14,691 nucleotides of DNA, taken from contig JAVEEO010000309.1 in the NCBI GenBank assembly GCA_030840415.1, positions 1 through 14,691 on the forward strand. The letters are read 5' to 3'. Made by a program: the position numbers and the translations under genes. Shown here piece after piece: positions 577 through 14,120 of this stretch. Each line of letters begins with the position of its first letter. Within the stretch, counting starts at the first letter, position 1. The DNA comes from Pseudonocardiales bacterium. GTDB taxonomy: Bacteria > Actinomycetota > Actinomycetes > Mycobacteriales > Jatrophihabitantaceae. The notes under the pieces are model-generated. The model was not told where the DNA came from, ran no database searches, and saw only the letters and a program-made list of their open reading frames with translations.

Positions 577-933
577 ATGCACTTCAAGGACGCGCTGGGA
601 CGCTACGGCGAAGCGATCGCCGCTCGCTGCCTGACCGACTCCGGTCACCGGCTGATCGAGACCAACTGGCGCTGTGACCGGGGCGAGATCGACATCATCG
701 CCGCAGACGGGCGCACTCTGGTTATCTGCGAGGTCAAGACCCGCACCTCGCTGGCCTTCGGCGAGCCGGCCGAGGCGGTGGGCGAGGCGAAGTCCAGACG
801 GTTGCGGTTGCTGGCCACCCGATGGTTGGCCGAGCATCCCGGCGGCTGGGAGTCGGTCCGCTTCGACGTGGTGTCGGTGCTGCGCCTGGCGCACGGGCCG
901 GCGCAGGTGCGGCATCTGCGGGCGGTGTTCTGA
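577..933 (+). CDS. yraN: YraN / UPF0102 family endonuclease-like protein
   Basis: 118 residues, the usual YraN length (about 115-125). The family has a restriction-endonuclease-like fold with an unproven role in DNA processing. The nuclease-like core is visible: RYGE near residue 9, then ETNWRCDRGEIDIIAADG and LVICEVKTR, where E of GEIDII, D of IDII and the E-V-K triad correspond to the PD-(D/E)xK signature. I chose the ATG at 577 because AGGG (565-568) lies 8 bases before it and the family begins at about this point. The open frame extends back to 421, but that extension has no family similarity. The stop TGA overlaps the comM ATG (TGATG), implying one transcript and translational coupling. 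Confidence 0.92.
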   Translation: MHFKDALGRYGEAIAARCLTDSGHRLIETNWRCDRGEIDIIAADGRTLVICEVKTRTSLAFGEPAEAVGEAKSRRLRLLATRWLAEHPGGWESVRFDVVSVLRLAHGPAQVRHLRAVF

Positions 934-2375
934 TGGCGCTGGCCGGCACCCTGTCGATCGCGCTGTCCGGGGTGTCCGGGCGGCTGATCGAGGTCGAGGC
1001 CGACCTGTCCGCGGGATTGCCGGGCCTGACGTTCACCGGACTGCCTGACGTCTCGGTGCTGGAATCCCGCGACCGGATCAGGGCAGCGGTCCTGAACTCG
1101 GGCTGGGCCTGGCCGAACAAGCGGATTACCGTCGCGCTGCTGCCGGCCGACGTCCGCAAGTACGGCTCGGTGTTCGACGTGGCGCTGGCGGTGTCGGTGC
1201 TCGCCGCGGCCGGCGAGGTACCGGCTACCGCGGTGGCCGGAGTGGTGTGGCTGGCCGAGCTGGGGCTGGACGGGCGGCTGCGGCCGGTCCGCGGAGCGCT
1301 GCCCGCGGTGCTGGCCGCGCGCGAGGCGGGGGTGCGGCGGGTGGTGGTGTCACCGGGCAACGCGGCGGAGGCGGCCCTGGTGACCGGCCTGGACGTACTG
1401 GTGGCCGGCTCGCTGACCGAGGTGGTGCTGGCCCTGCGCGGCGGCGCGCCACTGGTGCCGGCACCGGCGAGCCACTCCGATCCGGGCGCGGCGTTGCCCG
1501 ACCTCGCCGACGTGGTGGGCCAGCCGGTTGCCCGGCGGGCCCTGGAGATCGCTGCCGCAGGGGCGCACCATTTGCTGCTGGAGGGCGCGCCTGGAGCCGG
1601 CAAGACCATGCTGGCCGAGCGGTTGCCCTCGATCCTGCCGGAGCTGGAGCCGGCGGCCGCGCTGGAGGTGACCGCGATCCATTCGGTGGCCGGCGTGCTT
1701 CCCGGCGGTGCCGGCCTGCTGCGGCGGCCACCGCTGCAGGCACCGCACCACACCTCGTCGATGGCGGCCCTGGTGGGCGGCGGCAGCGGGCTGGGACGGC
1801 CGGGTGCCGCGTCGCTGGCCCACCGTGGCGTGCTGGTGCTCGACGAAGCGGCCGAGTTCAAGCCCACCGTGCTCGACTCGCTGCGCCAGCCGCTGGAATC
1901 GGGGGAGATCGTGCTGCACCGGACCGGGGGAGCGGTCAGCTACCCGGCCCGGTTCCAGCTGGTGATGGCCACCAACCCGTGCCCGTGCGGGGCCAGCAAG
2001 GACACCGACTGCTCCTGCACGCCGGATGCCCGCCGCCGGTACCGGCGCCGGCTGTCCGGTCCGCTGCTGGACCGGATCGACCTGCAGATCCCGATCGATC
2101 CGGTCTCGCGTGCCGAACTGATGCAGGATCTGCAGGCTCGAGAGCCGAGCGTCGCGGTGGCCGGCCGGGTGGCCGGCGCCCGGGCGGCAGCCAGGGACCG
2201 GTGGGCACCGTTCGGCTGGAACACCAATGCCGAGGTGCCCGGGCCGGTGCTGCGCTCCCGCGCCTGGCGGCCACCGCGCCAGGCCCTGAGCCGCTTGGAG
2301 GACGAGCTGGAACGGGGTGGGCTGAGCGCGCGCGGCTGCGACCGGGTGCTGAAGCTCTATTGGATAGCGGTCTAG
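933..2375 (+). CDS. comM: YifB/ComM Mg-chelatase-like AAA+ ATPase, 3' end replaced by element
   Basis: ComM is a hexameric AAA+ branch-migration helicase that helps integrate incoming DNA during natural transformation in Gram-negative bacteria; its role in actinobacteria is not established. Visible parts: N-terminal Lon-protease-like ChlI domain (about 1-170), Walker A GAPGAGKT (218-225), Walker B LVLDEAAE (301-308), a cysteine cluster NPCPCGASKDTDCSC (348-362), and GPLLDRIDL (about 376-384). The start overlaps the yraN stop. The host frame continues to K474-L475; after that the mobile element contributes Y-W-I-A-V and a TAG. Normal family members continue with a conserved helix beginning like SWTLADLAG, and exactly that sequence is found at 11618 onward. 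The 480-residue product lacks the end of the C-terminal Mg-chelatase helical domain. It is probably impaired, though it may still fold. Confidence 0.96.
   Translation: MALAGTLSIALSGVSGRLIEVEADLSAGLPGLTFTGLPDVSVLESRDRIRAAVLNSGWAWPNKRITVALLPADVRKYGSVFDVALAVSVLAAAGEVPATAVAGVVWLAELGLDGRLRPVRGALPAVLAAREAGVRRVVVSPGNAAEAALVTGLDVLVAGSLTEVVLALRGGAPLVPAPASHSDPGAALPDLADVVGQPVARRALEIAAAGAHHLLLEGAPGAGKTMLAERLPSILPELEPAAALEVTAIHSVAGVLPGGAGLLRRPPLQAPHHTSSMAALVGGGSGLGRPGAASLAHRGVLVLDEAAEFKPTVLDSLRQPLESGEIVLHRTGGAVSYPARFQLVMATNPCPCGASKDTDCSCTPDARRRYRRRLSGPLLDRIDLQIPIDPVSRAELMQDLQAREPSVAVAGRVAGARAAARDRWAPFGWNTNAEVPGPVLRSRAWRPPRQALSRLEDELERGGLSARGCDRVLKLYWIAV
2341..2375 (+). other. attL: left attachment junction
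   Basis: Host comM reads through codon K474 (AAG at 2352-2354), then the core AGCT at 2353-2356, then element sequence CTATTGGATAGCGG. Compared with the right junction, identity is limited to AGCT; the flanking bases differ on both sides (A versus T before, C versus G after). A core this short is typical of serine integrases. The exact cut dinucleotide cannot be told from the product sites alone. Confidence 0.88.
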
Positions 2376-2382
2376 CAGAGGT

Positions 2383-2434
2383 GGCATAAGAGGGTTGCCG
2401 CCCGGGCATATCTGCGGGCATAGTTACTGGCATG
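2383..2434 (+). promoter_or_regulatory. Left-end promoter region with GGCATA repeats
   Basis: GGCATA occurs at 2383-2388, 2405-2410 and 2417-2422, and GGCATG at 2429-2434, the last three copies spaced 12 bp apart. TTGCCG (2395-2400) and CATAGT (2419-2424), 18 bp apart, could be -35 and -10. Transcription would then begin at or next to the ATG at 2432, giving a leaderless message. No Shine-Dalgarno sequence precedes that ATG. The repeats look like an operator, but no regulator is identified. Confidence 0.42.
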
Positions 2435-2629
2435 GCTGATAGCACACCCGACAAGGTGTTGGAGAACCGCCTTCGTCGTATGGCTGCCCGCCAGGGGTAC
2501 ACCGTTCGCCGCACCCGGCGACGCGATCCCCGCGCCATCGACTACGGCACCTACTCGGTGCTGTCGCCGGCCGGCGAGGTCGTGGTCGAGGGCTTGACCA
2601 TCAAACAGTTGGAGGAATGGTTGGACTGA
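2432..2629 (+). CDS. Conserved small basic protein, 65 aa
   Basis: Small soluble protein of a type I recognise from many actinobacteria and their phages without a known function: an N-terminal basic helix (ENRLRRMAARQGYTVRR), the motif RRRDPRAIDYGTY, and a C-terminal part with a glycine turn and a final helix (LTIKQLEEWLD). No transmembrane segment or signal peptide. It is the first gene inside attL, transcribed into the element, opposite to the phage structural genes. No ribosome binding site is seen, and a possible -10 lies about 8 bases before the ATG, so leaderless translation is plausible. A strong hairpin follows at 2638. The frame's conserved character makes it a real gene; any role in lysogeny or immunity would be a guess. 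Confidence 0.75.
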   Translation: MADSTPDKVLENRLRRMAARQGYTVRRTRRRDPRAIDYGTYSVLSPAGEVVVEGLTIKQLEEWLD

Positions 2630-2637
2630 CAGCAGAC

Positions 2638-2676
2638 GGCCCCCGGTGCGGTGTTGGTAGCACCGAACCGAGGGCC
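2638..2676 (+). terminator. Hairpin terminator after the 65-aa gene
   Basis: GGCCCCCGGTGCGGTG (2638-2653) pairs with CACCGAACCGAGGGCC (2661-2676), 14 of 16 positions matching, around a 7-base loop. TTGATCG follows, so there is no real T tract. It separates the 65-aa gene from the next rightward gene. Confidence 0.65.
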
Positions 2677-2727
2677 TTGATCGAAACCCCCAGCGATCCG
2701 CTACAGAGCCCAGGAAGGTTCCGACCC

Positions 2728-3198
2728 GTGAACAAGAGTACCCAGCCCGACCCTGTGATACGCCCGGACGACCTCCTCCTCACCGAGCAGGAATGGCACG
2801 CCCGAGCGCGTGACGAACTCGCGCACATGATGGGCGCCGTGGTGATCTTCACCTCGGACGCACCGATGAGCGACAGTGAACTGCTGTCGGTGTTCAACTT
2901 CCTGGAGATTGGCCCCGATGGCCGGCACCCCCGAGAGGGCAGGCTGTACGGGCGACTGGGCGCCTGCCAGGCTGTGATGTTCGTGCACTGGCCGGACTCG
3001 GCCGCGCGGCTGCTCACGATCAAGTACAACCAGAAATTGGCGACCATCGGACAGCCGGGGCTGATCAGCTCATTGGGCCAAGACATGCGCAGGGGCATCG
3101 GGCGAGATGGCCTGCCCGACATGGACGAGTTGCTGATCGGCGCGCGGCTGGACCTCATCGTCCAGCGGGAAGCGTTCAACGTCAGGACCGCCTGGTGA
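2728..3198 (+). CDS. Hypothetical element protein, 156 aa
   Basis: I do not recognise the family. The product is soluble, with no signal peptide or membrane helix, and has the look of a compact alpha/beta domain: an early acidic helix (LTEQEWHARARDELAHMM), a hydrophobic strand (GAVVIFTSD), a middle part (GRLYGRLGACQAVMFVHW) and a C-terminal helix ending in FNVRTAW. I placed the start at the GTG (2728) because AGGAAGG (2712-2718) lies 9 bases upstream. The frame is open back to 2617, but that would run through the hairpin at 2638-2676. It is in the rightward left-end cluster, away from the structural genes, where satellites often carry immunity or accessory genes. No function can be assigned. 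Confidence 0.72.
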   Translation: MNKSTQPDPVIRPDDLLLTEQEWHARARDELAHMMGAVVIFTSDAPMSDSELLSVFNFLEIGPDGRHPREGRLYGRLGACQAVMFVHWPDSAARLLTIKYNQKLATIGQPGLISSLGQDMRRGIGRDGLPDMDELLIGARLDLIVQREAFNVRTAW

Positions 3199-3238
3199 GC
3201 GGGCACCCGTTGATGCTGCCCGAGTCGGTGAGCTGACC

Positions 3239-3430
3239 GTGGCGTACTGGGACGACTGGGAGGATCGGGCGAGGCGATACGTGCCGCCACCACGGCGCCG
3301 CCGCACCGACCGGTGGCAGCACAAGCTACAGGTAGCCCTTGCGCTGCTCGGGTCGCACTCTGCGGTGTGGGCCTGCACGCAGTGGTGGGTGGAGGTCAAC
3401 CGCTTCATGAGCGGGCCGCACCAGCGCTGA
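3239..3430 (+). CDS. Small tryptophan- and arginine-rich protein, 63 aa
   Basis: Unrecognised. GTG start with a weak GGTGAG (3227-3232) six bases upstream. The N-terminal half is acidic and aromatic (MAYWDDWEDRARRYV), then a run PPPRRRR, then a mildly hydrophobic stretch (QVALALLGSHSAVWA) and a second tryptophan pair (TQWWVEVNRF). The hydrophobic stretch is short for a membrane helix. It lies in the same direction as the neighbouring rightward genes and is followed directly by a perfect palindrome and a long hairpin. It could be spurious, but the ordered placement between regulatory structures favours a real small gene. Confidence 0.45.
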   Translation: MAYWDDWEDRARRYVPPPRRRRTDRWQHKLQVALALLGSHSAVWACTQWWVEVNRFMSGPHQR

Positions 3431-3459
3431 TTTATCGCGGGCAAGTTGGCCGCGATAAA
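3431..3459. promoter_or_regulatory. Perfect 10-bp inverted repeat
   Basis: TTTATCGCGG (3431-3440) and CCGCGATAAA (3450-3459) are exact reverse complements around 9 bases. It starts directly after the stop of the 63-aa gene. As RNA it is a stable hairpin flanked by A/U on both sides, and as DNA it is a symmetric protein-binding site. Terminator and operator are both possible. Confidence 0.55.
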
Positions 3460-3464
3460 CGGGG

Positions 3465-3504
3465 GAGCCGGGCTGTTGTCATAAATCTGACACCGGCCCG
3501 GCTC
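3465..3504 (+). terminator. Long interrupted hairpin, probable terminator
   Basis: GAGCCGGGC (3465-3473) pairs with GCCCGGCTC (3496-3504). Inside, TGTCA (3477-3481) pairs with TGACA (3488-3492) around TAAATC, with a 3-by-3-base internal loop between the two stems. TCTGTTGTG follows. It lies between the 63-aa gene and the 55-aa membrane gene, so it either ends the first transcript or forms the leader of the second. Confidence 0.6.
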
Positions 3505-3518
3505 TCTGTTGTGTCACG

Positions 3519-3686
3519 ATGACGGGCATGTGGTTCATCATCGCCGGGCTGTGCTTCGGGGTGGCCTGCGGAACGATCGCTCAGCAGCGCGGCCGGGCGT
3601 TCCTAGAGTGGTTCGTCATCGGGGCGGTGACGGGCATCTTCGGGCTTGGGTTCCTGCTCTACCGCACCCGCGACCGCTACGTCTAA
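3519..3686 (+). CDS. Small two-helix membrane protein, 55 aa
   Basis: A short frame from ATG 3519 to TAA 3684-3686. It encodes two hydrophobic segments (WFIIAGLCFGVACGTIA, residues 5-21, and WFVIGAVTGIFGLGFLL, residues 31-47) joined by a polar loop QQRGRAFLE and ended by RTRDRYV. The pattern of small-residue helix, IAxxxGR, W-F, glycine-rich helix is common in small membrane proteins of actinobacteria and their phages. No Shine-Dalgarno is seen before either M1 or M4. Its last 84 bases overlap the end of the leftward 98-aa gene. A membrane role such as superinfection exclusion is conceivable but unsupported. Confidence 0.62.
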   Translation: MTGMWFIIAGLCFGVACGTIAQQRGRAFLEWFVIGAVTGIFGLGFLLYRTRDRYV

Positions 3687-3899
3687 CGCGACCCCCAAGA
3701 TCTTCTGCTGCTCGCGGAGCGTCAACACGGCCGCAGTGAGCAAGTCCCACAGGAACTCGATGTCGACCCGCCCCTCGTCATCGGTGGGCACCCACTCGCT
3801 GTAGGCAGCCAGCACCGGCGAGTGGCTGAGCACCAGCCCTTGCAGGCAGTCCATCACACTGCGGACGTTCTTCGTCGTGTCGTCCTCGGGCCAGGTCAC
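3603..3899 (-). CDS. Hypothetical protein coupled to the tape measure gene, 98 aa
   Basis: GTG start overlapping the tape measure TGA by four bases (GTGA), so translation is almost certainly coupled. The product is acidic and soluble, with a central amphipathic/hydrophobic part (IEFLWDLLTAAVLTLREQQKILGVALDVAVAGAV, shown here as two helical segments around residues 46-60 and 62-80) and a charged tail. I do not recognise it. In tailed phages the genes after the tape measure encode baseplate or tip proteins, but this one is far too small for a distal tail protein. Its 3' end overlaps the convergent 55-aa gene by 84 bases. Confidence 0.7.
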   Translation of the reverse strand: MTWPEDDTTKNVRSVMDCLQGLVLSHSPVLAAYSEWVPTDDEGRVDIEFLWDLLTAAVLTLREQQKILGVALDVAVAGAVEQEPKPEDARHRPDDEPL

Positions 3900-6370
3900 C
3901 AGGGCATCCGCATCCCGTTGCGCTCGGCCTGAGCCAGCGCGGGGACGACGGCCCGGGCGATCTGGTCCGCGCTGGCCAAAGGCTGGGCGACGTGAACGTG
4001 GACGTGAGTGTCGCCACCACGGCCACGGCTCGACGAGTCCATAGCGCGGACCTGGGACGCCGACGCGACCCGGGAGCCACGGGGCAGGAACACCCGCTCG
4101 CGGCCCTGCTCACCTACATCGGCCCACCCACCGGGCGCGTAGGTGGTGCCGGATGCGAACGCCTGCCGCCCGCCCGATACGCCGTGCGAGGTTTGCGTCA
4201 CGACGTGGATCGTAGCGACCTGACCGTTCGCGTAGTCGATGACGGAGCGGATCACGGCCCTAGCGGCACCAGCGCCGACGACCGCAAGGCTGGTGCTCAC
4301 GCTGTTGGGTATGTGGTGCAGCGCGGCCTGGTGGGCGGCGACCGCCGCCCGGGCCGCCTTGTCCTCCACCTCGATATCGGTCTTGATGGACTTCGGCACC
4401 CCACCGTACTTTTTGATCAGCGCGTCAACGGCGTCCTTGCTGAACCCCGCCGCGACAGCCTGCTTCCGCAGCGCCGCCTCATCCGTGAGGTAGTGCCGGG
4501 CGGCGTTCGCGGATGACTGCCCGGCCTTCTCCAACGCCACGGCGTGAGCCTGCGCAGCCTTGATCGAGGACAGCACAGCCTCTTGGTTCGTCCGGCCCTT
4601 CGCGGAGTTGTCGTCCAGCGCGTGCCCGTTCTCCTTCACTCCCTCGGTCAGAGCGTGTACCGAGTCGAGGAACCCGAGCTGGGCGGACTTGACGTCCAGC
4701 GATCGGCCGTTGAGGAAGTCCAGCCCTGCCGCCAGCGACGCCGCCGCCTTGGCCTCGGCGGTGATATCGGCAGCAGCCTGCCGAGCTGCTTCCGCCTGCG
4801 CCTTCGTCGCGGCAGTCTCGGCAGCTGCAGCATCGGCTGCGGCCTTGTTCGCTGCGGCGCTGTCGTCGGCGGCCTTGGTGGTGGGCTTGTTCTTCGGCTG
4901 GCTGGGCTTGTCGCTGAACGGCTTCCAGTTCTGGAGGTTGAACGGGTTGCGGTCCTCCCACCACAGCTTCGGCTTCGTCGCTAGCTGCTTGTTCTGCTGG
5001 GCGATCCCTACCGCCAGGCCAGCGGGAATCGCGGCAATCCTGAGCATGGATGCAGCACCGGCGGTGCGCGCGGCGGCAAGGTGGCGTGTAGCGACCACTT
5101 CGGACTCGATCGCGGATGCCGTCGCCGCCGATTGGAAACCGAGAGCACGCGACAGGGGTATTGCGAGCTTGGCTGAGGCATTCCAGGCACTTGCTGCAAC
5201 GGCCGCACCGGCAGCGGCTAGCTTGAACCCGACAACCCCGACGACGACCGCCTCAATCGCTGTCGCGTTGTCGTTGATGATGTGGAGCCCGTCATTGATG
5301 ACGGGTAGCAGCTTGTTTCCGATGCTGATTTCCAGCGAACTGACGTTGGCCTCAAGGGTCTTCATCTGACCCTCGTTCGACTTCAACCAGTCGTTCCAGG
5401 ACTGGTTGAAGGTCTTGCCGCCCCGCGCGACCTCCTCCGTCTTCAAGCGGTACCGGTCTATCTGGCCGATGAGCACCGCGAGCCCCGGGCCGGCCTTCTT
5501 GCCGAACACCTCGGTCAACACGCCGCCGACCTCGGTGGTGCCGACCTTCGCGGCTTTCAGGTGCGCGTAGAGGTCTTCGAGCGCCGAGCTCAACCCGCCC
5601 TTGGCCATGTCGTCGCGGAGCTTCGTTGTCGACAGCCCGAGCCGCTTGAGGGTGTCCGCACCCTGAGCCGCCGGGGTGGACAACGCCTGCACCGCCATGC
5701 GCAGCATGGTCGCGGCGTCGGCGCCTCGGATGTTGTTGTCACCGAAAGTGGCAAGCGCCGCGCCTACGTCGTTGAGGCTGAGTCCGTAGCCCTTGACCAC
5801 CGTCAGGACACCCGACGCCAGGGCATCGTTCAGGTCTTGCATCTTCATGTCACCAGCGCCGACGATGGCGTTCAGCGAGCCCATCGCGGCGGCCATGTCC
5901 TGCACCCCGGGGATGCCGGACGCGATGGTCGAGGTCAGCGCGTTGGTGGTGGCCTCGAGGTCCGCGTGCCCGACGTTCGCACCCTCGGCCGCGATCCTGA
6001 CAGCCTCCAGGCCCTTCGCGCCGCGCAGCCCGGTCGATTCGATGTGATAGAGGCTGACGGCCATCTCGTCCGCGCCGGTGGCGACCTGCGGAGCCAGCTT
6101 CAACAACTGCCCGGACTGCTTGTTGACCTCATCCATCGACACGCCCGCTTGGGTGTGCAGCAGCAGCATGTCCGACTGGTACTTCGTCGCCTTCTTGGCT
6201 GCGTCGGCCAAGCCGATAGCCAGACCGGCAGCGGCCAGCGCGCCGTGCTTGATGAACGCGCCGGACATCTTGGCCCCGGACGCCTCGGCTTCACCGGCGA
6301 CCTTCTTGAACACCTTGCCGGCGGTGACGTCCTCGCCGAACAGCAGGAAATGCAGTGACTTACTCGCCAT
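3896..6370 (-). CDS. Phage tail tape measure protein (TP901 type)
   Basis: 824 residues. Tape measure proteins fill the tail tube of long-tailed phages, fix its length and are ejected at infection. Visible parts: short N-terminal start (SLHFLLFGEDVTAGKVF), the TP901-type core from about 60 to 300 with YQSDMLLLHTQAG, ATGADEMAVSLYHI and DVGAALATFGDNN, hydrophobic segments at about 371-398 and 436-456, an alanine-rich coil at about 499-550, and the typical C-terminal WADVGEQGRERVFLPRGSRV. Frame and C-terminus are intact. ATG at 6370 has GGAAGG 9 bases upstream, but that site lies inside a hairpin. By the usual rule of about 0.15 nm per residue it would specify a tail near 120 nm. Oddly, no tube, terminator or chaperone gene accompanies it, and the capsid gene is the direct upstream neighbour. 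Confidence 0.93.
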   Translation of the reverse strand: MASKSLHFLLFGEDVTAGKVFKKVAGEAEASGAKMSGAFIKHGALAAAGLAIGLADAAKKATKYQSDMLLLHTQAGVSMDEVNKQSGQLLKLAPQVATGADEMAVSLYHIESTGLRGAKGLEAVRIAAEGANVGHADLEATTNALTSTIASGIPGVQDMAAAMGSLNAIVGAGDMKMQDLNDALASGVLTVVKGYGLSLNDVGAALATFGDNNIRGADAATMLRMAVQALSTPAAQGADTLKRLGLSTTKLRDDMAKGGLSSALEDLYAHLKAAKVGTTEVGGVLTEVFGKKAGPGLAVLIGQIDRYRLKTEEVARGGKTFNQSWNDWLKSNEGQMKTLEANVSSLEISIGNKLLPVINDGLHIINDNATAIEAVVVGVVGFKLAAAGAAVAASAWNASAKLAIPLSRALGFQSAATASAIESEVVATRHLAAARTAGAASMLRIAAIPAGLAVGIAQQNKQLATKPKLWWEDRNPFNLQNWKPFSDKPSQPKNKPTTKAADDSAAANKAAADAAAAETAATKAQAEAARQAAADITAEAKAAASLAAGLDFLNGRSLDVKSAQLGFLDSVHALTEGVKENGHALDDNSAKGRTNQEAVLSSIKAAQAHAVALEKAGQSSANAARHYLTDEAALRKQAVAAGFSKDAVDALIKKYGGVPKSIKTDIEVEDKAARAAVAAHQAALHHIPNSVSTSLAVVGAGAARAVIRSVIDYANGQVATIHVVTQTSHGVSGGRQAFASGTTYAPGGWADVGEQGRERVFLPRGSRVASASQVRAMDSSSRGRGGDTHVHVHVAQPLASADQIARAVVPALAQAERNGMRMPW

Positions 6371-6378
6371 GTGCTACG

Positions 6379-6398
6379 GCCTTCCAGTGAGGGAAGGC
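6379..6398 (-). promoter_or_regulatory. Hairpin enclosing the tape measure ribosome binding site
   Basis: On the minus strand GCCTTCC (6398-6392) pairs with GGAAGGC (6385-6379) around CTCACT, a perfect 7-bp stem. The second arm contains the Shine-Dalgarno GGAAGG, 9 bases from the ATG at 6370. While folded it should hide the ribosome binding site. Confidence 0.6.
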
Positions 6399-6493
6399 GC
6401 GACGGCGGAGGGTGGGGCCTTGGACCGACCGGTACCACCGGTCTTGCCCATCCCTTAGCGGACCAGAAGATGCCGCCTTGCCGCCGTCGCGCC
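6396..6493 (-). repeat. 13-bp perfect inverted repeat between capsid and tape measure genes
   Basis: GGCGCGACGGCGG (6396-6408) and CCGCCGTCGCGCC (6481-6493) are exact reverse complements, 72 bp apart. One arm begins five bases after the capsid stop codon. The other shares three bases (6396-6398) with the hairpin that hides the tape measure ribosome binding site. Between the arms lies a second palindrome, GACCGGT-ACC-ACCGGTC (6427-6443). Confidence 0.7.
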
Positions 6494-6498
6494 AAGTT

Positions 6499-8007
6499 CT
6501 AGAAGGTCGGGGCTACCTGACCGAAACCGGCCGCCGAGTTGCCGCCGATGATCTGCACCGCGTTCGGGTACCGGGCTGCCGTGAATCCGAAGTAGCCGTA
6601 GCTGACCAGCTTCACGGTGAGCTGGTTGCCCAGCGTCTGCTCGAACCGCAACTCGCGGGGCATCCCGTCGCCGTCCTCGAACAGGATCAGGTCAGCCGCC
6701 CGGTACACGATCACCAGGTCTTCGGGGCCGGAGCCGACCGCGACCGGCATGCTCGGGTCCACCACCTGGTGCAGGTTCAGCAGCTCCTTGTCGACACCGA
6801 CCGCGTTCTGCGGGGCCTGCGAGCTGGGCACGACCAGCGGCCGGCCGTTGTTGTCGAACTGGTTGGACAGCCAGCTCGAGCGGCGCGGCGCAAGGGCCAT
6901 GTGGGTCGGTGCGAGGAAGCGGCTTGACGTGATCGCCGAGACCGCGCCGTTGACCTTGCTGTAGAACGTCTGCACCGTGGCGGCGGCGGTGTACGCGGTG
7001 GCCTGCAACACCCCGGAGGTGTTGAGCACGCCCAGCACCTGACCGGACGAGCCCGAACCGGAAAGGAGCTGCTGGTCGAGGTTGACCGCGTACGCGCCTG
7101 CGAGGTCCATGAAGACCAGGGCGTCATTGCCGGCTGCGCCCCGCTCCAGGGACTGCCGGGACACGTCCTGCTGCCCAGCTGCGGTGGCGACGGGCAGCAC
7201 CAGATCGCCCCACACCTCATCCGTCGAGGAGACCGAGGTGTTCTGGGTCGACTGGATCGCCACCGATGCGCCGGTGGTGCCCTTGGGGATGTTGAACGTC
7301 ATGCCGGTCTCGGGCAAGGGCAGATTGGTCACCGTGTTGGCGAACGGCCGGCCGGCGCGGACCACCGGGGCCACCAGGTCGAGCAGGTACTGCGGCGGGA
7401 CGTTGCCGGCGAACGAGCCCGTCGACAGGGCGCGGCTCGTCTGCTCATTGTTGACCTCGACCTCGCGGGCGTGACGCTGCAACCGGATCCGCGCGCCTTC
7501 GTCGTTGTGCACGTTCATCCGGTACAGATCCTTCAACCAGGACCGCGGCCCTTCCCGGTCGAGACTGTTGTTCGCGTTGTCCGGGTTGTACGTGCGCTGC
7601 TCGTAACCGATCACACCGTCACCAGCGTTCCGGGAGAACCCGGCCCGCTGCTGGCTCGCACCGCCGCCGACCGACGAACGGTCATCGCCCACGCTGTAGG
7701 TGGTGGTGGTGTACGCACTGACTGCAGCGGTCGGTGTGGTCACGGCAGCTCGGGCCGCGTCGACCTCATCACGCTGGGCCTCGGACTCGACGGCCCGCAA
7801 CTGGGTGCGCAGCCTGGACACGTGCGGGTCAGCGTCGATCAGCTCGACAGCGGCGCGGACCCGCTCAGACTCAGCCGACGTCGGCTGACGTCCACCGCCA
7901 GCAAGACACGCGGCCTGCACGGCGCGGATCTGGGTGTACTGCGGGTGAGACTGACGGGCCTGTTCGATCTGCTGCTCAACCTGAGCACGGAGTTCATCAA
8001 GCGTCAT
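6499..8007 (-). CDS. Phage major capsid protein, HK97 fold
   Basis: 502 residues that build the icosahedral shell. The N-terminal part (1-90) is a charged coiled coil (LDELRAQVEQQIEQARQ, then VSRLRTQLRAVESEAQRDEV), resembling the scaffolding/delta region of HK97-type capsid proteins. It is followed by a low-complexity linker rich in T, S and Y (91-130). The shell domain runs from about 190 and includes VPPQYLLDLVAPVVRAGRPF, FNIPKGTTGASVAIQ, an arm with AYAVNLDQQLLSGSGSSGQVLGVLN (here recognised as the usual DQxxLxG-GxGxxxGxLN pattern), and a C-terminal VKLVSYGYFGFTAARYP. ATG at 8007 is preceded by AAGGGGA about 10 bases upstream. No prohead protease or portal gene is adjacent, so assembly would need proteins from elsewhere. 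Confidence 0.93.
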   Translation of the reverse strand: MTLDELRAQVEQQIEQARQSHPQYTQIRAVQAACLAGGGRQPTSAESERVRAAVELIDADPHVSRLRTQLRAVESEAQRDEVDAARAAVTTPTAAVSAYTTTTYSVGDDRSSVGGGASQQRAGFSRNAGDGVIGYEQRTYNPDNANNSLDREGPRSWLKDLYRMNVHNDEGARIRLQRHAREVEVNNEQTSRALSTGSFAGNVPPQYLLDLVAPVVRAGRPFANTVTNLPLPETGMTFNIPKGTTGASVAIQSTQNTSVSSTDEVWGDLVLPVATAAGQQDVSRQSLERGAAGNDALVFMDLAGAYAVNLDQQLLSGSGSSGQVLGVLNTSGVLQATAYTAAATVQTFYSKVNGAVSAITSSRFLAPTHMALAPRRSSWLSNQFDNNGRPLVVPSSQAPQNAVGVDKELLNLHQVVDPSMPVAVGSGPEDLVIVYRAADLILFEDGDGMPRELRFEQTLGNQLTVKLVSYGYFGFTAARYPNAVQIIGGNSAAGFGQVAPTF

Positions 8008-8125
8008 TTGGGAGAATCCCCTTGGAGGAATGCGCGAACGGCAAGCCGCGCAGAACGGATTGGTAGGGGCGGACGAGAGACCCGCAACCCGAGGCAGAGC
8101 GCCGGGGCAGTCTCAGATCGTCAAG

Positions 8126-8151
8126 GCCAGTCTGTGACGCCAGTCTGTAAC
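8126..8151. repeat. Tandem 13-bp repeats in the capsid leader
   Basis: GCCAGTCTGTGAC (8126-8138) is followed at once by GCCAGTCTGTAAC (8139-8151), differing in one base. A related CAGTCTCAGA sits just before, near 8108. They lie between the proposed capsid promoter and the capsid start, suggesting a binding site for an activator or repressor. Confidence 0.6.
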
Positions 8152-8170
8152 AGTCCCCATCCGGGGCGTC

Positions 8171-8193
8171 CTTGGAGCGACGTTCTTGGAGCG
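8171..8193. repeat. Direct repeat CTTGGAGCG, two copies
   Basis: CTTGGAGCG at 8171-8179 and again at 8185-8193, 14 bp apart, just downstream of the proposed capsid promoter on the minus strand. A shorter CTTGGAG recurs near 8027, close to the capsid start. Confidence 0.5.
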
Positions 8194-8207
8194 GCTTGCC
8201 GAGTTCA

Positions 8208-8213
8208 ATTATC
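8208..8213 (-). promoter_or_regulatory. Candidate extended -10 for the capsid operon
   Basis: On the minus strand the sequence reads TGTGATAATTG: a GATAAT hexamer with TG one base before it, the best -10-like sequence in the element. No clear -35 is seen, which is allowed for extended -10 promoters. It would give a leader of about 190 bases before the capsid start at 8007, containing both repeat pairs. Confidence 0.45.
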
Positions 8214-8400
8214 ACACACGGACCCGACAGCGGACGGGTTTTCTACATGGGCACGCCGCGCGACCTGCCCAGTCGAGCTTTTTATATCCCCCCGAGAAAA
8301 AAACAGCCCAGGGGCAAGTAGGTGGTGGAAAAAAACGCGATAGATAGAAAACGGGGACGACTGGCTGGGTCGTGGCGTGGTGCTGTGTAGAAAACTCGGC

Positions 8401-8418
8401 GGGGCCGAGGCTGGCCCC
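8401..8418 (-). terminator. Hairpin after the HNH gene
   Basis: GGGGCC (8401-8406) and GGCCCC (8413-8418) form a 6-bp stem around six bases. On the minus strand it stands 12 bases past the HNH stop and is followed by GCCGAGTTTTC, a short T run. It plausibly ends the early leftward transcript. Confidence 0.5.
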
Positions 8419-8430
8419 ACCACTGAGAAC

Positions 8431-8721
8431 TCACCAGTCCCGCGACGACCGGCGTGATGGTGGCGGCGGCGGTCGGTGGCCGTGCCCCCGTCGGCGGTTG
8501 CGTGCCACGTTGCAGTAGCGGTGCGCCGGCCGAAGGTTGTGGGCGTCGTCGGTACCCCCGTCCTCCTTCGGGATGATGTGGTCGACCTGAAAGCTAAGCG
8601 GGTGCCAGTACGGCGCGTCATAGTCGATGGCTCCGCCGCAGAGTCCGCACGGTTGGCGTTGCGCCCGTAGCCGTTGGGCCTTGACCCGAAAGGCATACGT
8701 CCGCGATGAGTGCCGAGACAC
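8431..8721 (-). CDS. HNH endonuclease
   Basis: 96 residues with a complete HNH (beta-beta-alpha metal) motif: CGLC (C25, C28), VDHIIPKEDGG (D47, H48), N62 in HNLRP, H67 and a late CN (C70). The C-terminus is a basic proline/arginine tail. HNH proteins of this size are common next to terminase genes in HK97-like cos phages, where they stimulate the terminase; others are free-standing homing nucleases. Here it is the last gene of the overlapping early block (start 6 bases after the previous stop) and has no terminase beside it. GTG start with no clear ribosome binding site, so it likely depends on coupling with the gene upstream. A role in packaging with a helper terminase is inference. Confidence 0.88.
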   Translation of the reverse strand: MSRHSSRTYAFRVKAQRLRAQRQPCGLCGGAIDYDAPYWHPLSFQVDHIIPKEDGGTDDAHNLRPAHRYCNVARNRRRGHGHRPPPPPSRRSSRDW

Positions 8722-8727
8722 ACGACG

Positions 8728-9036
8728 TCAGGCGAGGGATGAGGCGTCATCGGGTGCACTGTCGATCAGGTCACCGCATCCCCGGTAGTAGTCGAGGGTG
8801 TCGGGGTGGTCGCCAGCCAGCAGCCGGGACACCCGGTCGAGCACCACGGCCCGCTTCTCCACCAGCGCCGGCAGGCCATACCGGGCCACGGCTTCCACGG
8901 TGTCGTGCAGCCTGAGCTTGCGCCGGATCAGCGCGAGCCCGGCCGTGTTCATCCCTGCTACGTCGAGGAGTTCGCCCACGACGGTGAGTTCGACAGCGAG
9001 CATCAGAGCTTCGTCCTGCTGGGTCGGGCCGTTCAC
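8728..9036 (-). CDS. Hypothetical protein, 102 aa
   Basis: GTG start at 9036 overlapping the preceding stop by four bases (GTGA). The frame stays open to 9105, but the coupled GTG fits the spacing of the whole block. The product is mainly helical: an N-terminal LMLAVELTVVGELLDVAGM, then LIRRKLRLHDTVEAVARYGL, VEKRAVVLDRVSRLLAG, and an acidic C-terminus. I recognise no domain. Its place between the initiator-like gene and HNH, with overlap on one side and a 6-base gap on the other, marks it as part of the early replication/recombination block. Confidence 0.72.
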   Translation of the reverse strand: MNGPTQQDEALMLAVELTVVGELLDVAGMNTAGLALIRRKLRLHDTVEAVARYGLPALVEKRAVVLDRVSRLLAGDHPDTLDYYRGCGDLIDSAPDDASSLA

Positions 9037-9581
9037 GCCGCGTCCTTCCGGTGCTGCTTGCAGGGTGTGTTGTTGAAGACCAGCGAGCGCTGGCAGTCCG
9101 GACACGACAGGTCGACAGTTCCAGCTAACTCACCTTCCGCTAACTGAGTCCTGTCCTGTGCCTGTCCTGCGGGGAGAGTGCTTACGTCAGGGCTTACGTC
9201 ATCGCTTACCCCGAGAGATTCCCCCTTCGCGGCCTCCTCGGCTGCCTTCCGGGCTCGGTGCTCTGCCTGGTACTTCCGGTTGTTTGCTTTCCGTGTGGCA
9301 ACGGTCGCGGCCGACTCCTGACCGGAGGCGCCGGTCCAGTCAGGGATGTAGTAGCCGTCCGGTCCGGACTTCCACCAGCCGGCCGAGACCAACTCCTCCG
9401 CAGTCGGGTTGTCCAGGCCGAGCGGGTGCAGGAACCCGTAGCACTCGGGCGGCAGCTTGCCGTCGGTGCCGGACTCGTTGGACCACATCAGCGAGGCGGT
9501 GAAGGTCCGGGCGGCGCGGTCGGACAGCCGCATCCACTGCAACCGAAACAGCCACGGCCCAGGCAGCCGCGCGTCGGTCAC
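9033..9581 (-). CDS. Replication-initiator-like (replisome organiser type) protein
   Basis: 182 residues, GTG start overlapping the TGA of the 48-aa gene. The N-terminal half (WLFRLQWMRLSDRAARTFTASLMWSNES, then a glycine-containing turn, LPPECYGFLHP, AEELVSAGWW and GYYIPDW) has the layout of a family common in actinophages and integrative elements next to xis genes: a winged-helix-like domain that senses DNA, then a basic helix (VATRKANNRKYQAEHRARKAAEEA). The C-terminal tail holds CPDC and CKQH, a possible zinc-binding group seen near residues 161-177. Relatives are annotated as replication initiators or DnaD-like organisers mostly by context. A role in replicating the excised circle is plausible but unproven; a transcription regulator is the alternative. 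Confidence 0.62.
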   Translation of the reverse strand: MTDARLPGPWLFRLQWMRLSDRAARTFTASLMWSNESGTDGKLPPECYGFLHPLGLDNPTAEELVSAGWWKSGPDGYYIPDWTGASGQESAATVATRKANNRKYQAEHRARKAAEEAAKGESLGVSDDVSPDVSTLPAGQAQDRTQLAEGELAGTVDLSCPDCQRSLVFNNTPCKQHRKDAA

Positions 9582-9724
9582 GCAGCACCTCGTTCTTGTC
9601 CCCCGTCGCCACGGAGCAGGACGGCGAGGCGGTCTCGCTGTGCTGTCGTCAGCGGTGGCCAGTCCGCAACCATCTTGTCGATCGTGTGCTTGATCTCGTC
9701 GGTGATGCCTTCGCCGTCGGCCAT
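9578..9724 (-). CDS. Small conserved protein downstream of xis, 48 aa
   Basis: Reads from ATG 9724 to TGA 9580-9578. The product begins MADGEGITDEIKHTIDKM and continues with WPPLTTAQRDRLAVLL, a pattern (PPLT-x-x-QRDRLAxLLR) I know from small proteins in actinobacterial integrative elements, usually next to an excisionase. The ATG overlaps the xis stop (TGATG), and its TGA overlaps the GTG of the next gene (GTGA), so it is locked into the translation chain. The function is unknown; the length suggests a short helical adaptor. Confidence 0.75.
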   Translation of the reverse strand: MADGEGITDEIKHTIDKMVADWPPLTTAQRDRLAVLLRGDGGQERGAA

Positions 9725-9930
9725 CACTGCCCCAGCCGCAGAGCCTCGACGTCGACGCGGACGAGCCGGCTGCCGGGGAGCCGCCCTCCGGCGAGGTCGC
9801 CCCGCTCGACCATTCGCCGCACGGTCTGGGCCGAGATACCCAGGACGGCGGCGGCGTCGGTCGTGGAGACGTAGCGCTGTGCCCGCCGTTCTCGGCGGTT
9901 GCGTGGGGTCGGTTGATCGGTCTGCGACAC
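9724..9930 (-). CDS. xis: Excisionase-like HTH protein (candidate recombination directionality factor)
   Basis: 68 residues with a MerR/Xis-type winged helix-turn-helix: YVSTTDAAAVLGISAQTVRRMVERGDLAGGRLPGSRLVRVDVEAL (helix-turn-helix at about 22-42, wing with GGRLPG-SRLVR). A short basic leader precedes it. GTG start with GGAAAGG nine bases upstream. Proteins of this type direct excision for tyrosine integrases, and at least one, Rv1584c of phiRv1, does so for a serine integrase. It is the first gene of the overlapping early block and the only good candidate in the element to reverse integration. It could also act as a repressor of its own promoter, given the repeats upstream. Confidence 0.85.
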   Translation of the reverse strand: MSQTDQPTPRNRRERRAQRYVSTTDAAAVLGISAQTVRRMVERGDLAGGRLPGSRLVRVDVEALRLGQ

Positions 9931-9970
9931 TTGTGTCTGCCTTTCCCGCTTCCGTGTGGGGAGGTAGCGG

Positions 9971-10006
9971 CCCCGGCCCAGCGCCTAGGAAACGAAAGGG
10001 CCGGGG
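9971..10006 (-). terminator. GC-rich hairpin between int and xis
   Basis: CCCCGGCCC (9971-9979) pairs exactly with GGGCCGGGG (9998-10006) around 18 bases; the stem can extend with a bulge. It lies in the xis leader and downstream of the int stop on the same strand, with no T tract. It could end int transcripts or attenuate entry into the xis block. Confidence 0.5.
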
Positions 10007-10113
10007 ACCGCGCTAACGGTTACGGTTGGAATTCTCTCAGCGCTTACTGACGCTCTCGCGCTCGTTCGCAACACAGCGCCCTTGGCCGAGGGTTTCAGCG
10101 GACACAGAATGAC

Positions 10114-10153
10114 GTCAGGGGTAGTCACGGGCAGTCAGGGGCAGTTAAACGCA
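10114..10153. repeat. 10-bp tandem repeats between int and xis
   Basis: GTCAGGGGTA (10114-10123), GTCACGGGCA (10124-10133) and GTCAGGGGCA (10134-10143) follow without gaps, and GTTAAACGCA (10144-10153) looks like a degenerate fourth copy. A 10-bp period puts each copy on the same face of the helix, as for cooperative binding of a Xis- or MerR-type protein. Nearby, CGTTACGC (10163-10170) and CGTTATGC (10174-10181) form a further pair at an 11-bp period, partly inside the int 3' end. Confidence 0.68.
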
Positions 10154-10175
10154 CAGGAATGCCGTTACGCAATCG

Positions 10176-11591
10176 TTATGCGGCCGGCGTGTCCTTCGAC
10201 GGGGTGCACAACACGGTGCGCCGGTCGAAGGTGCGGACTCCCCGGCCGGGCGGCAGGATCGTGACCTCCATCAACAGCCCGATCACGGCCCGCTTCCGGT
10301 CGGTGCTCAGCAACTCCCAAGTGCCCCGCACGTCGGCGGCATCGACCAGCGGCCCGAGCATGTCCAGCCGGGCGCCGTCGATCTGCTTGGCCTCGATACC
10401 GGCCAGCTTCTCCCGTAGCCGTTCGTTGATGATCCGGAGCTGTCCGGGCTCGAGGTCGCCTTCGGCGAACTGGACGGCGGCGGCGTCCATGCGAGCCCGG
10501 ATCGCCGTAGCCTCGGCCCGGAGTCCTGCCAGGTCAGGGACGGCCCGGTCGATCAGCAGTTCGCGCGCGTCGGGGCGACTGAGCCGGGCGACAACCACAT
10601 CGCCGACGTAGCGGTCGACGGGATCGGCCTTGCGCCCAAAGTGGCCGACGGAGCCCGAGCAGCGGTAGTTGGTGGTGCCCTTGCCTCGGCCCCCGCCGGC
10701 GTGCACGGTGGCGCCGCAAACGCCGCAGCGGGCGAGTCCGGTCAGTAGGGCCTTGGCGTTCGAGGCGCCGGTCATCCGGCGGGGGTCGTTGAGCAGCCCG
10801 ACGGCGGCGGTGAAGGTGTCCTCGTCCACGATGGCGGGCCAGCAGGCCGGGCCCATGTACTCGCCCAGGTGCCACCGCTGGCCGGCGTTGCGCGGGTTCG
10901 CCAGCACCACCCGGACGGAATCCCGGCGCCACGGCGACGGGGCGCCCAGGTTCGCGCCGCGCCGCTCCTGCCCGGTCACGAATCCGCGGTCGTTCCAGTC
11001 TCGGGCGATCTGCCCCAGGGACACCCCGGCGAGAAGATCGGCGTAGCCCTGACGGATGGCGTCGGCCTCGCCCGGGCGCACGGTCACCCCGTCGGCCTCA
11101 TACCCGAACGGGCGCCGTCCCACGGTGCGCTTTCCAGCCTTCGCAGCTTGCAGGTTCGCGGCCTTCTGCCGGGTCGCCTTGCGCTCGACCTCGCCCCGCG
11201 CCACCGACGCGAGGATGCGGGCGACCATGCGGCCCTGATCGGTGGACAAGTCCATGTCCCCGCTCACGGTGGCGATGGCGACGGAGTTCCGTTCGGCGAG
11301 GTCGATGAGCCGTTCGAGGTCGACCAGCGACCTAGTGAGCCGGTCGACGGCCCAGGCAACTACCACGTCAACCTCGCCGCGCTCGATCATGCCGACGAGG
11401 CGCGTGAACCCCTTCCGGGGAGCCTTGCCGAAGGCGCTGACGCTGTTGTCCACGATGGTCTCGCTGACGGTCCAGCCGCGTGCTCGGGCGAGCTGCCGGC
11501 AGGCTTCGTCCTGGCGTTCGACGGCGAGTCCTTCTCCGGTTTGGTCGAGGGATACGCGGGCATAGACCACTGTGCGCGGCTTCGTCATCAC
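10176..11591 (-). CDS. int: Large serine integrase (site-specific recombinase)
   Basis: 471 residues that would join attP and attB without a host factor, through a covalent serine-DNA link. Resolvase domain about 6-150: YARVSLD with nucleophile S14 and R12, VDRLTRS (83-88) and GRMVARILASVARGE. Recombinase domain about 155-260 (GRRPFGYE, VSLGQIARDWNDRG, NPRNAGQR). Zinc ribbon about 285-330 with C289, C292 and C311; the fourth ligand is probably H317, as the usual late cysteine is absent. A coiled coil follows at about 350-395. Two ATGs are adjacent (11591, 11588), with a weak GGCGG before them. Only 23 bp separate the start from the attR core, so its promoter cannot lie inside the element while integrated. 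The gene is intact. Confidence 0.96.
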   Translation of the reverse strand: MMTKPRTVVYARVSLDQTGEGLAVERQDEACRQLARARGWTVSETIVDNSVSAFGKAPRKGFTRLVGMIERGEVDVVVAWAVDRLTRSLVDLERLIDLAERNSVAIATVSGDMDLSTDQGRMVARILASVARGEVERKATRQKAANLQAAKAGKRTVGRRPFGYEADGVTVRPGEADAIRQGYADLLAGVSLGQIARDWNDRGFVTGQERRGANLGAPSPWRRDSVRVVLANPRNAGQRWHLGEYMGPACWPAIVDEDTFTAAVGLLNDPRRMTGASNAKALLTGLARCGVCGATVHAGGGRGKGTTNYRCSGSVGHFGRKADPVDRYVGDVVVARLSRPDARELLIDRAVPDLAGLRAEATAIRARMDAAAVQFAEGDLEPGQLRIINERLREKLAGIEAKQIDGARLDMLGPLVDAADVRGTWELLSTDRKRAVIGLLMEVTILPPGRGVRTFDRRTVLCTPSKDTPAA

Positions 11592-11640
11592 ATCCGCCAG
11601 ACTAACAGGCAGTAGCTGTCCTGGACTCTGGCCGACCTGG
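11590..11640 (+). other. attR: right attachment junction
   Basis: Element sequence (GACTAACAGGCAGT) ends at the AGCT of 11614-11617, after which comM resumes with GTCCTGGACTCTGG. Replacing the junction with the left one rebuilds codons for D-R-V-L-K-L-S-W-T-L in frame, the expected family sequence at this point. Confidence 0.88.
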
Positions 11641-11723
11641 CGGGGCTGGCCAGCCCCGGTCCGGCCGAGGTGGCCGAGGCGATCTGGTTGCGTACCGGCC
11701 GGGCGGCGGTGAGCACGGCATGA
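11616..11723 (+). pseudogene. comM: Detached 3' end of comM
   Basis: Thirty-five codons plus stop, starting with the split leucine codon CTG (11616-11618) and reading LSWTLADLAGLASPGPAEVA, then EAIWLRTGR, to TGA 11721-11723. This is the missing end of the Mg-chelatase C-terminal helical domain. It has no start of its own and is not expected to be translated in the integrated state. The stop overlaps the dprA ATG, which shows the original comM-dprA coupling. There is no frameshift or stop in it, so the gene half is still under selection or was split recently. Confidence 0.93.
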
Positions 11724-12946: not shown

Positions 12947-13060
12947 CGCGGCTACCGGGCGCGCGCAGTGTCAGCCCATGCCTGCCCGTTCCAGCACCCG
13001 CCGCGTTCCGGTGGCTGGATCGGGGCCGGGAGTCAGCCGACCTGCTGGCCGGCAGGCACG

Positions 13061-14032: not shown

Positions 14033-14046
14033 CCTCAGGGCTTCAT

Positions 14047-14088
14047 CCCCGCTGACCGGGGTGGCCCGCCGGCTGGCCCCGATGGGGG
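14047..14088. terminator. Convergent terminator hairpins
   Basis: CCCC (14047-14050) pairs with GGGG (14058-14061) around 7 bases, and GCCCC (14076-14080) with GGGG (14084-14087) around 3. They lie between the convergent xerC and M23 genes. CCGCCGGCTGGC also occurs twice here (14066-14077 and 14093-14104). Stems are short, so this is a modest call. Confidence 0.4.
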
Positions 14089-14120
14089 TGCTCCGCCGGC
14101 TGGCTGATCCGCCCGTGCGC

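What the first reader, a model, noticed from the sequence alone, without database searches (positions are those of the whole stretch)
2341..11723. Element splits comM exactly; excision would restore it in frame
Host comM stops at K474-L475 and its remaining 35 codons sit 9,261 bp away, directly before dprA. Joining at AGCT restores D-R-V-L-K-L-S-W-T-L-A in frame with no loss or duplication. Both halves lack frameshifts. With an intact serine integrase and a Xis-like protein in the element, comM could be switched back on by excision, as with the comK prophage in Listeria (active lysogeny). comM is also the known target of AbaR islands in Acinetobacter, so the same gene attracts elements in distant phyla.
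Basis: partly seen in the sequence, partly recalled or inferred. Interest (0 to 1): 0.88.

Follow-up and report, generated by a model that had tools for sequence, protein, structure and literature searches.

The report
Integrase element inserted inside comM gene
A 9.3-kb phage-derived element has cut the DNA-recombination gene comM cleanly in two, in a way that removal would exactly undo; related bacteria show that this gene is a landing site used repeatedly by such elements, which was already known in outline.

Summary
Host comM stops after codon 474, its last 35 codons lie 9,261 bp away, and both ends share AGCT (2353-2356, 11614-11617). Joined there, comM reads through. Seven of eight same-genus genomes carry comM uninterrupted at that point.

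It is a serine-integrase element with capsid and tape-measure genes; no terminase, portal or protease was recognised. The likely crossover is CT, bases 1-2 of codon 475: reconstructed attP is symmetric about it, and two other insertions at this codon share GT and AT there.

comM is split by mobile elements in 17 of 298 sampled genomes of the order (this one included; 18 insertions, not all shown to be independent), at four positions. Integrase clades largely follow position; a prediction from the tree held in Kibdelosporangium banguiense and two more genomes.

The hub is in print: Durrant et al. 2022 report 'magnesium chelatase' genes as targets of 12.4% of predicted site-specific serine recombinases.

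Active lysogeny is untested. Selection on the split comM is not relaxed, so the insertion is recent or comM still matters; but in two other genomes with an integrase in comM the rest of the gene was not found. Verdict: a well-supported new member of a known kind.

The parts
933..2356 (+). comM (yifB) codons 1-474 plus the first two bases (CT) of codon 475; reading continues in element DNA to a stop ending at 2375
   Evidence: Pfam ChlI, Mg_chelatase, Mg_chelatase_C; matches same-genus comM
2353..2356 (.). attL core AGCT; probable crossover CT = 2355-2356
2432..2629 (+). 65-aa ORF, unknown
   Evidence: no Pfam/PHROG match up to E 0.1
2617..3198 (+). 193-aa ORF, unknown
   Evidence: no Pfam/PHROG match up to E 0.1
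3519..3686 (+). 55-aa ORF, weak match to phrog_8436 (unknown function)
   Evidence: E 3e-5
3603..3899 (-). 98-aa ORF, unknown
   Evidence: none
3896..6370 (-). tail tape-measure protein, 824 aa
   Evidence: PhageMin_Tail 4e-17; phrog_28 3e-22
6499..8007 (-). HK97-type major capsid protein, 502 aa
   Evidence: Phage_capsid 3e-16; phrog_2263 8e-43; 456 proteins at E<=1e-10, itself included, among 7,994 candidates scored
8431..8721 (-). HNH endonuclease, 96 aa
8728..9105 (-). 125-aa ORF, unknown
   Evidence: none
9033..9581 (-). replication-initiation-like protein, 182 aa
   Evidence: phrog_2447 8e-12; no Pfam match
9724..9930 (-). HTH_17 protein, 68 aa; candidate excisionase / directionality factor
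   Evidence: HTH_17 6e-9; phrog_66 'excisionase and transcriptional regulator' 6e-6, with other HTH families close behind
10176..11591 (-). large serine integrase, 471 aa; start 22 bp from the core
   Evidence: Pfam; aligns with the TP901-1 integrase catalytic domain; C-C-C-H zinc-ribbon pattern as in the site-A relatives aligned
11614..11617 (.). attR core AGCT; probable crossover CT = 11616-11617
11616..11723 (+). last 35 codons of comM plus stop; the stop overlaps the dprA start (ATGA)
11720..12946 (+). dprA
   Evidence: DNA_processg_A 2e-62

Best explanation
A small phage-derived element (mini-prophage or satellite-like) entered the chromosome by serine-integrase recombination between its attP and an attB inside comM. 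Strand exchange was probably at CT, bases 1-2 of codon 475. It trimmed ComM of its last 34 residues, added five element-coded ones, and separated dprA from the comM reading frame that it overlaps by 4 bp. The integrase plus a directionality factor, probably the 68-aa HTH_17 protein, could reverse this and rebuild comM exactly. comM is a shared landing gene: different integrase clades have taken up at least four positions in it across the order. Shown from sequence: anatomy, empty sites, exact join, recurrence, match of integrase clade and position. Inferred: the crossover bases, which protein is the directionality factor, loss of ComM function, ability to excise.
For: Join and empty sites. Integrase and HTH domains. 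attP symmetry best at CT in G000 and at GT and AT in the other two joined site-A elements, the last not significant at 0.055. Frame-keeping joins for 12 of the 13 pairs given; the 13th, G219, needed a hand reading with one mismatch in the core. 17 of 298 genomes with comM split. Integrases of site B and of site C each group together (98/97 and 85/97). Prediction from the tree confirmed in K. banguiense, G125 and G202. Control gene radA: 294 of 298 matched, 3 of them weak, in fragmented or incomplete assemblies.
Against: Crossover bases and directionality factor are inferred. Site-A integrases were not one clade as labelled (2 changes); the rows that broke it and were tested (L005, L031, L032) proved to be site A too, but L055 in the same branch shows no comM in its 1.5-kb flanks. 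The integrase nearest to ours in sequence, in G067 (52%), is not in comM. G047's site-C integrase was not in the tree. The tree tool warned of long branches meeting in the site-B group. The radA test is crude: the same cut would flag only 9 of the 17 comM splits. No read-level evidence of excision.
Confidence: 0.88

Rival explanations
1. Active lysogeny: the element leaves comM when the host needs it and returns afterwards, as the Listeria prophage does at comK.
For: Exact in-frame restoration, open integrase and excisionase-like gene, no relaxed selection on comM: dN/dS 0.130 and 0.129 against two intact relatives, 0.126 between those. In several other elements the integrase gene follows truncated comM in the same direction, so the comM promoter could drive it.
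Against: No excision data. In this window the integrase faces the other way. In G271 and G165 the rest of comM was not found. Near-complete genomes G145 and G259 have no comM match, so comM is dispensable in the order. Recent insertion explains the selection result equally well.
Confidence: 0.1
2. Self-protection: by disabling comM the element makes its own removal by homologous recombination with incoming DNA less likely (chromosome-curing conflict).
For: Proposed for A. baumannii, where comM is often inactivated (22% of strains) and AbaR removal raised transformation about 300- to 1,000-fold (passages). Competence genes enriched among recombinase targets (passage). Unrelated machinery, a tyrosine-recombinase element in G109, also hit comM. 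A comEC-type gene is present in G000.
Against: Natural transformation was not tested for this organism; the comEC family also matches E. coli and 9 other genomes of the 14 controls. Site choice by conserved coding sequence explains the same pattern without selection.
Confidence: 0.3
3. Neutral target choice: integrases evolve to use conserved coding DNA, comM happens to offer several well-conserved motifs, and its loss is tolerated.
For: Sites lie in conserved motifs: residues 80-90 and 300-312 average 0.79 and 0.78 against 0.70 for the whole protein in 23 intact sequences, and residues 467-484 around site A average 0.84 by my sum over the columns printed. comM absent or decayed in some near-complete genomes.
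Against: radA, another conserved repair gene (its conservation was not measured here), shows no comparable splitting in the same genomes by a crude test, so conservation alone may not be enough.
Confidence: 0.45
4. Defective remnant: the element can no longer move and only marks an old prophage.
For: No terminase, portal or protease recognised; related capsids sit in contigs whose ORF sizes and order look like a normal siphophage head module (by size only).
Against: All main ORFs open; capsid aligns over its full length with relatives; att sites exact; the site is empty in close relatives.
Confidence: 0.3
5. Assembly artefact joining a phage contig into comM.
For: The genome is a draft of 569 contigs, 86% complete, 4% contaminated.
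Against: Both comM halves continue into the expected neighbours and rejoin exactly; other genomes show the same kind of insertion at the same codon.
Confidence: 0.02

Closest known systems
Large serine recombinases targeting 'magnesium chelatase' genes (PMC10083194, 2022; passages read; author name Durrant recalled)
   Same: Same target gene family (by annotation name), same recombinase class, exact split of the target; target of 12.4% of predicted site-specific integrases, competence genes enriched
   Different: The passages seen give no positions within the gene, codon phase or host group; here four positions are mapped in one order, with integrase clades largely following position. Its supplements were not read
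AbaR islands in comM of Acinetobacter (PMC7508600, PMC11472951; passages read)
   Same: comM split by a mobile element; removal restored function there
   Different: AbaR is described there as Tn7-like; here a serine integrase and phage genes
Listeria comK prophage, active lysogeny (search listing only; otherwise recalled)
   Same: Phage element in a competence-linked gene, exact excision possible
   Different: Regulated excision is reported there; nothing of the kind is shown here
phiRv1-like small prophages of mycobacteria (recalled, no call)
   Same: About 9 kb, serine integrase, small HTH excisionase, capsid gene
   Different: Different target; tape-measure gene here

Membership tests
Large serine integrase element | Resolvase catalytic domain + Recombinase domain + zinc ribbon in one ~470-aa protein | tested here: met
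   (zinc ribbon just over cut-off); alignments
Large serine integrase element | Short shared core, no long duplication, integrase gene beside one att site | tested here: met
   core 4 bp; aligned integrase domain 47 bp from the core
Large serine integrase element | attP with dyad symmetry about the crossover dinucleotide | tested here: met
Large serine integrase element | Uninterrupted attB in relatives | tested here: met
   7 of 8 same-genus genomes
Large serine integrase element | Directionality factor that allows excision | tested here: inconclusive
   HTH_17 candidate only
Phage satellite / mini-prophage | Virion gene(s) present, packaging set incomplete | tested here: met
   capsid and tape measure found; no portal or protease, and only weak hits of the HNH (1e-5) and HTH (6e-4) proteins to terminase-small families that rank below better HNH and HTH hits
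Phage satellite / mini-prophage | Mobilised by a helper phage | not testable with these tools
   needs induction experiments
Active lysogeny (phage regulatory switch) | Excision restores the gene exactly | tested here: met
   in sequence only
Active lysogeny (phage regulatory switch) | Excision occurs when the gene product is needed, without lysis | not testable with these tools
   no reads or cultures
AbaR / Tn7-like element | Tn7-type transposition genes | tested here: not met
   only a serine integrase recognised among the ORFs scanned

The most novel reading that the evidence does not exclude
comM-dprA is under recombinase control in many actinobacterial lineages: several elements place their integrase gene directly behind truncated comM in the same direction (site C 5 of 6, site A 4 of 6 with K. 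banguiense, site B 2 of 5 leaving out the tyrosine-recombinase one), so transcription of comM itself would make integrase and could set off excision and repair of comM. The window's element, with its integrase reversed, would be a variant of the same device.
Probability: 0.08. Interest if true: 0.8.

Novelty: new member of a known kind. Interest (0 to 1): 0.4.

Why it matters
It gives a concrete, checkable attB/attP pair and integrase, and shows in one bacterial order that a gene already known as a favourite of serine recombinases has been entered at four or more positions, by integrases that largely group by position, once twice in one genome, with the inferred crossover mostly at codon positions 1-2. 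That makes the question whether loss of comM is selected or merely tolerated open to direct test. Integrases with matched native att pairs may also be of use as tools.

Tried and rejected
The IMG/VR hit L007 looked like a possible excised copy; it is 100% identical to window 4868-14690, the same contig. G297 looked like a split comM but is a contig end (one search gives the contig length). G003, G010, G027, G053, G055, G114, G126, G138, G141, G158 and G232 show partial, frameshifted, duplicated, very weak or two-contig comM that I could not call; none is counted. A promoter and terminator scan of 11400-11800 found nothing. No tRNA and no Rfam match in the window. Viral-contig scans with the single integrase, capsid and tape-measure proteins gave, beside L007, one, none and two loci; an alignment of 25 capsids gave 80 kept loci of 595, of which 13 were inspected, by ORF size only. 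attB alone shows little symmetry. In one search the best attP centre of G049 (AC) falls outside codon positions 1-2, and those of G263_A (0.055) and G228 (0.0775) are not significant. The idea that a crossover at codon positions 1-2 shields it from silent drift is weakened by G007, whose Leu475 codon differs silently in its first base. Of the 39 rows of the integrase tree, 13 were labelled by site beforehand and 11 more tested for comM in their loci; the other 15 were not tested one by one. Left out of the tree: partial or broken integrases L003, L026, L043 and copies of rows already in. Literature: searches found no relevant paper on comM or (Mg/magnesium) chelatase with serine integrase and integration site or attB; (yifB, prophage, integrase) listed two papers and (phage satellite, tape measure, capsid) twelve of 46, none read; the known result came through and was read in passages.
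Full report
What was checked. The window is the whole of contig C398 of a draft genome (4.14 Mb, 569 contigs, 86% complete). comM starts at 933 by comparison with relatives, reaches codon 474 and the first two bases of codon 475 at 2356, and is then closed by element DNA (Leu475 read as CTC, then YWIAV and a stop). The 35 remaining codons start at 11616. The two ends share AGCT; the distance is 9,261 bp and the join is in frame. Of eight other same-genus genomes, seven carry comM uninterrupted across that point, two of them at 91% protein identity; G003 ends at a contig edge.

What the element holds. On the minus strand, from right to left: serine integrase, HTH_17 protein, replication-initiation-like protein, an unknown, HNH endonuclease, major capsid protein, tape-measure protein, an unknown; four ORFs at the left end read the other way, one of them (3239-3430) doubtful. 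No portal, protease or tail-tube gene was recognised, and of terminase only weak side hits of the HNH and HTH proteins. The integrase aligns with the TP901-1 catalytic domain from the serine region through DRLxRS, and with the solved integrase 9iu2 from residue 18 on (the role of these residues is recalled). It shares the C-C-C-H zinc-ribbon pattern of its site-A relatives.

Crossover point. The three joined site-A insertions share bases at the same place, bases 1-2 of codon 475: CT within AGCT here, GT in G117, AT in G263; K. banguiense shares GTCGC there, read by eye. Reconstructed attP of this element is symmetric about CT (13 of 22 positions, none of 400 shuffles as high; 12 of 20, p 0.0005 of 2,000; several centres and widths were tried). 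Best symmetry centres of the others fall on codon positions 1-2 in 10 of the 11 joins left after setting aside the tyrosine-recombinase element G109; G049 is the exception, and G263_A and G228 are not significant. G219 was not in that call.

comM as a hub. In 298 genomes of the order, drawn evenly from a larger group, the comM search (with rows completed) gave 17 genomes, our own included, with comM split by an element; 18 insertions. Site A (codon 475): G000, G117, G263, G125, G202. Site B (Walker B, about codon 306): G263, G049, G212, G189, G025, G109. Site C (about codon 84): G208, G260, G228, G271, G165, G047. Site D (about codon 279): G219. G263 has two insertions in one comM. G208, G271 and G165 are of one genus with closely related integrases, and G228 and G260 are similar to each other, so these need not be independent events. 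In G212, G208, G260 and G228 the two comM parts are on different contigs. In G271 and G165 only the N-terminal part with the integrase behind it was found. G109 carries a tyrosine-recombinase element. In G189 no serine integrase was found in the 20 kb read at each end. Where both parts are on one contig, inserts run from 8.0 kb (G109) to about 124 kb (G025). Eleven further genomes are ambiguous and not counted; G145 and G259 show no comM match and G265 only a trivial one; six draft genomes show none.

Integrase tree. In 39 integrases the four of site B form one group (98/97; the tool warned of long branches meeting there) and the five of site C another (85/97); G047's was not included. The three site-A integrases known before the tree fell in a branch with K. 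banguiense L005 (94/84), next to L031 and L032 and, further out, L055. I then looked where L005, L031 and L032 sit: all three directly follow comM codons 1 to about 474-477, that is, site A, and matching comM C-terminal parts lie about 42, 17 and 17 kb away. The tree thus predicted the site. Against this, G067's integrase, at 52% the nearest to ours in sequence, is not in comM, and L055 shows no comM in the short flanks held. With K. banguiense, which came from another collection, site A counts six insertions.

Control. The DNA-repair gene radA (TIGR00416) matched in 294 of the same 298 genomes; the four without a match are incomplete drafts. Best E-values worse than about 1e-125 occurred in three, G010, G053 and G138, all fragmented or incomplete. 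By the same cut comM has 18 weak matches and 9 absences, and nine of the weak ones are element insertions. The cut misses 8 of the 17 comM splits, one search used a profile and the other a single sequence, and the row list for radA was cut, so this control is indicative only.

Selection. dN/dS between this genome's comM (joined in a script) and G006 or G007 is 0.130 and 0.129, between those two 0.126, and lineage-specific amino-acid changes are 4, 0 and 4. The lost tail is nearly as conserved as the rest (0.66 for residues 475-509, 0.71 for 1-474). The insertion is therefore recent on this scale, or comM is still used. The comM stop codon reads ATGA in 14 and GTGA in 8 of 23 intact relatives (my reading), which suggests the overlap with dprA seen in the window is common; the dprA starts themselves were not checked there. 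The insertion leaves this overlap intact but cuts it off from the rest of comM.

What is already known. [quoted passage not shown] PMC11472951 reports comM inactivated in 22% of A. baumannii strains and discusses the chromosome-curing conflict (passages); PMC7508600 shows that AbaR removal restores comM function (passages). Author names used here are recalled. So the hub is not new; the map of positions, the crossover phase and this element are additions as far as my searches go. The supplementary data of PMC10083194 were not read and may hold them.

Active lysogeny. The sequence allows it and does not show it. The strongest point for it is precise restorability with open genes; the strongest against is the missing rest of comM in two genomes with an integrase in it, and its absence in near-complete genomes. 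The bolder reading, that comM transcription drives integrase and so its own repair, rests only on gene order and does not apply directly to this window, whose integrase is reversed.

Noticed in passing
3896-8007: Capsid gene and tape-measure gene are 128 bp apart with no connector, tail-tube, terminase, portal or protease gene recognised. In 13 viral contigs with related capsids the ORF sizes and order often look like a normal siphophage head module with a large tape-measure-sized ORF some kb downstream (by size, similarity to our tape measure seen only in L133). Could be a satellite that brings its own head and tail-length proteins, or a deletion remnant.
   Followed up: partly
L087 + L120 (G263): comM cut into three by two different elements, 13,228 bp at site B and 9,346 bp at site A; the site-A one has a self-complementary core (AT) and its integrase lies on the other side than in the window.
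   Followed up: yes
L103 (G271): comM reduced to its first 84 codons followed by an integrase, then dprA from residue 238 only: both genes apparently lost by a deletion after insertion.
   Followed up: partly
L090 (G109): 8-kb element with a tyrosine recombinase (Phage_integrase) and further large ORFs, Tn554-like by recollection, with 12-bp inverted ends, inside the comM Walker-B codons.
   Followed up: partly
G145, G259, G265: Near-complete genomes of the order with no or only a trivial comM match.
   Followed up: no
L007: IMG/VR viral record boundaries are off: it runs from inside the tape-measure gene through dprA, an xerC-like gene and an M23 peptidase to the contig end, missing the left part of the element and including host genes.
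   Followed up: yes
G055 C5 and C8: Two comM-like copies, one of them in pieces about 13 kb apart, not matching sites A-D.
   Followed up: no
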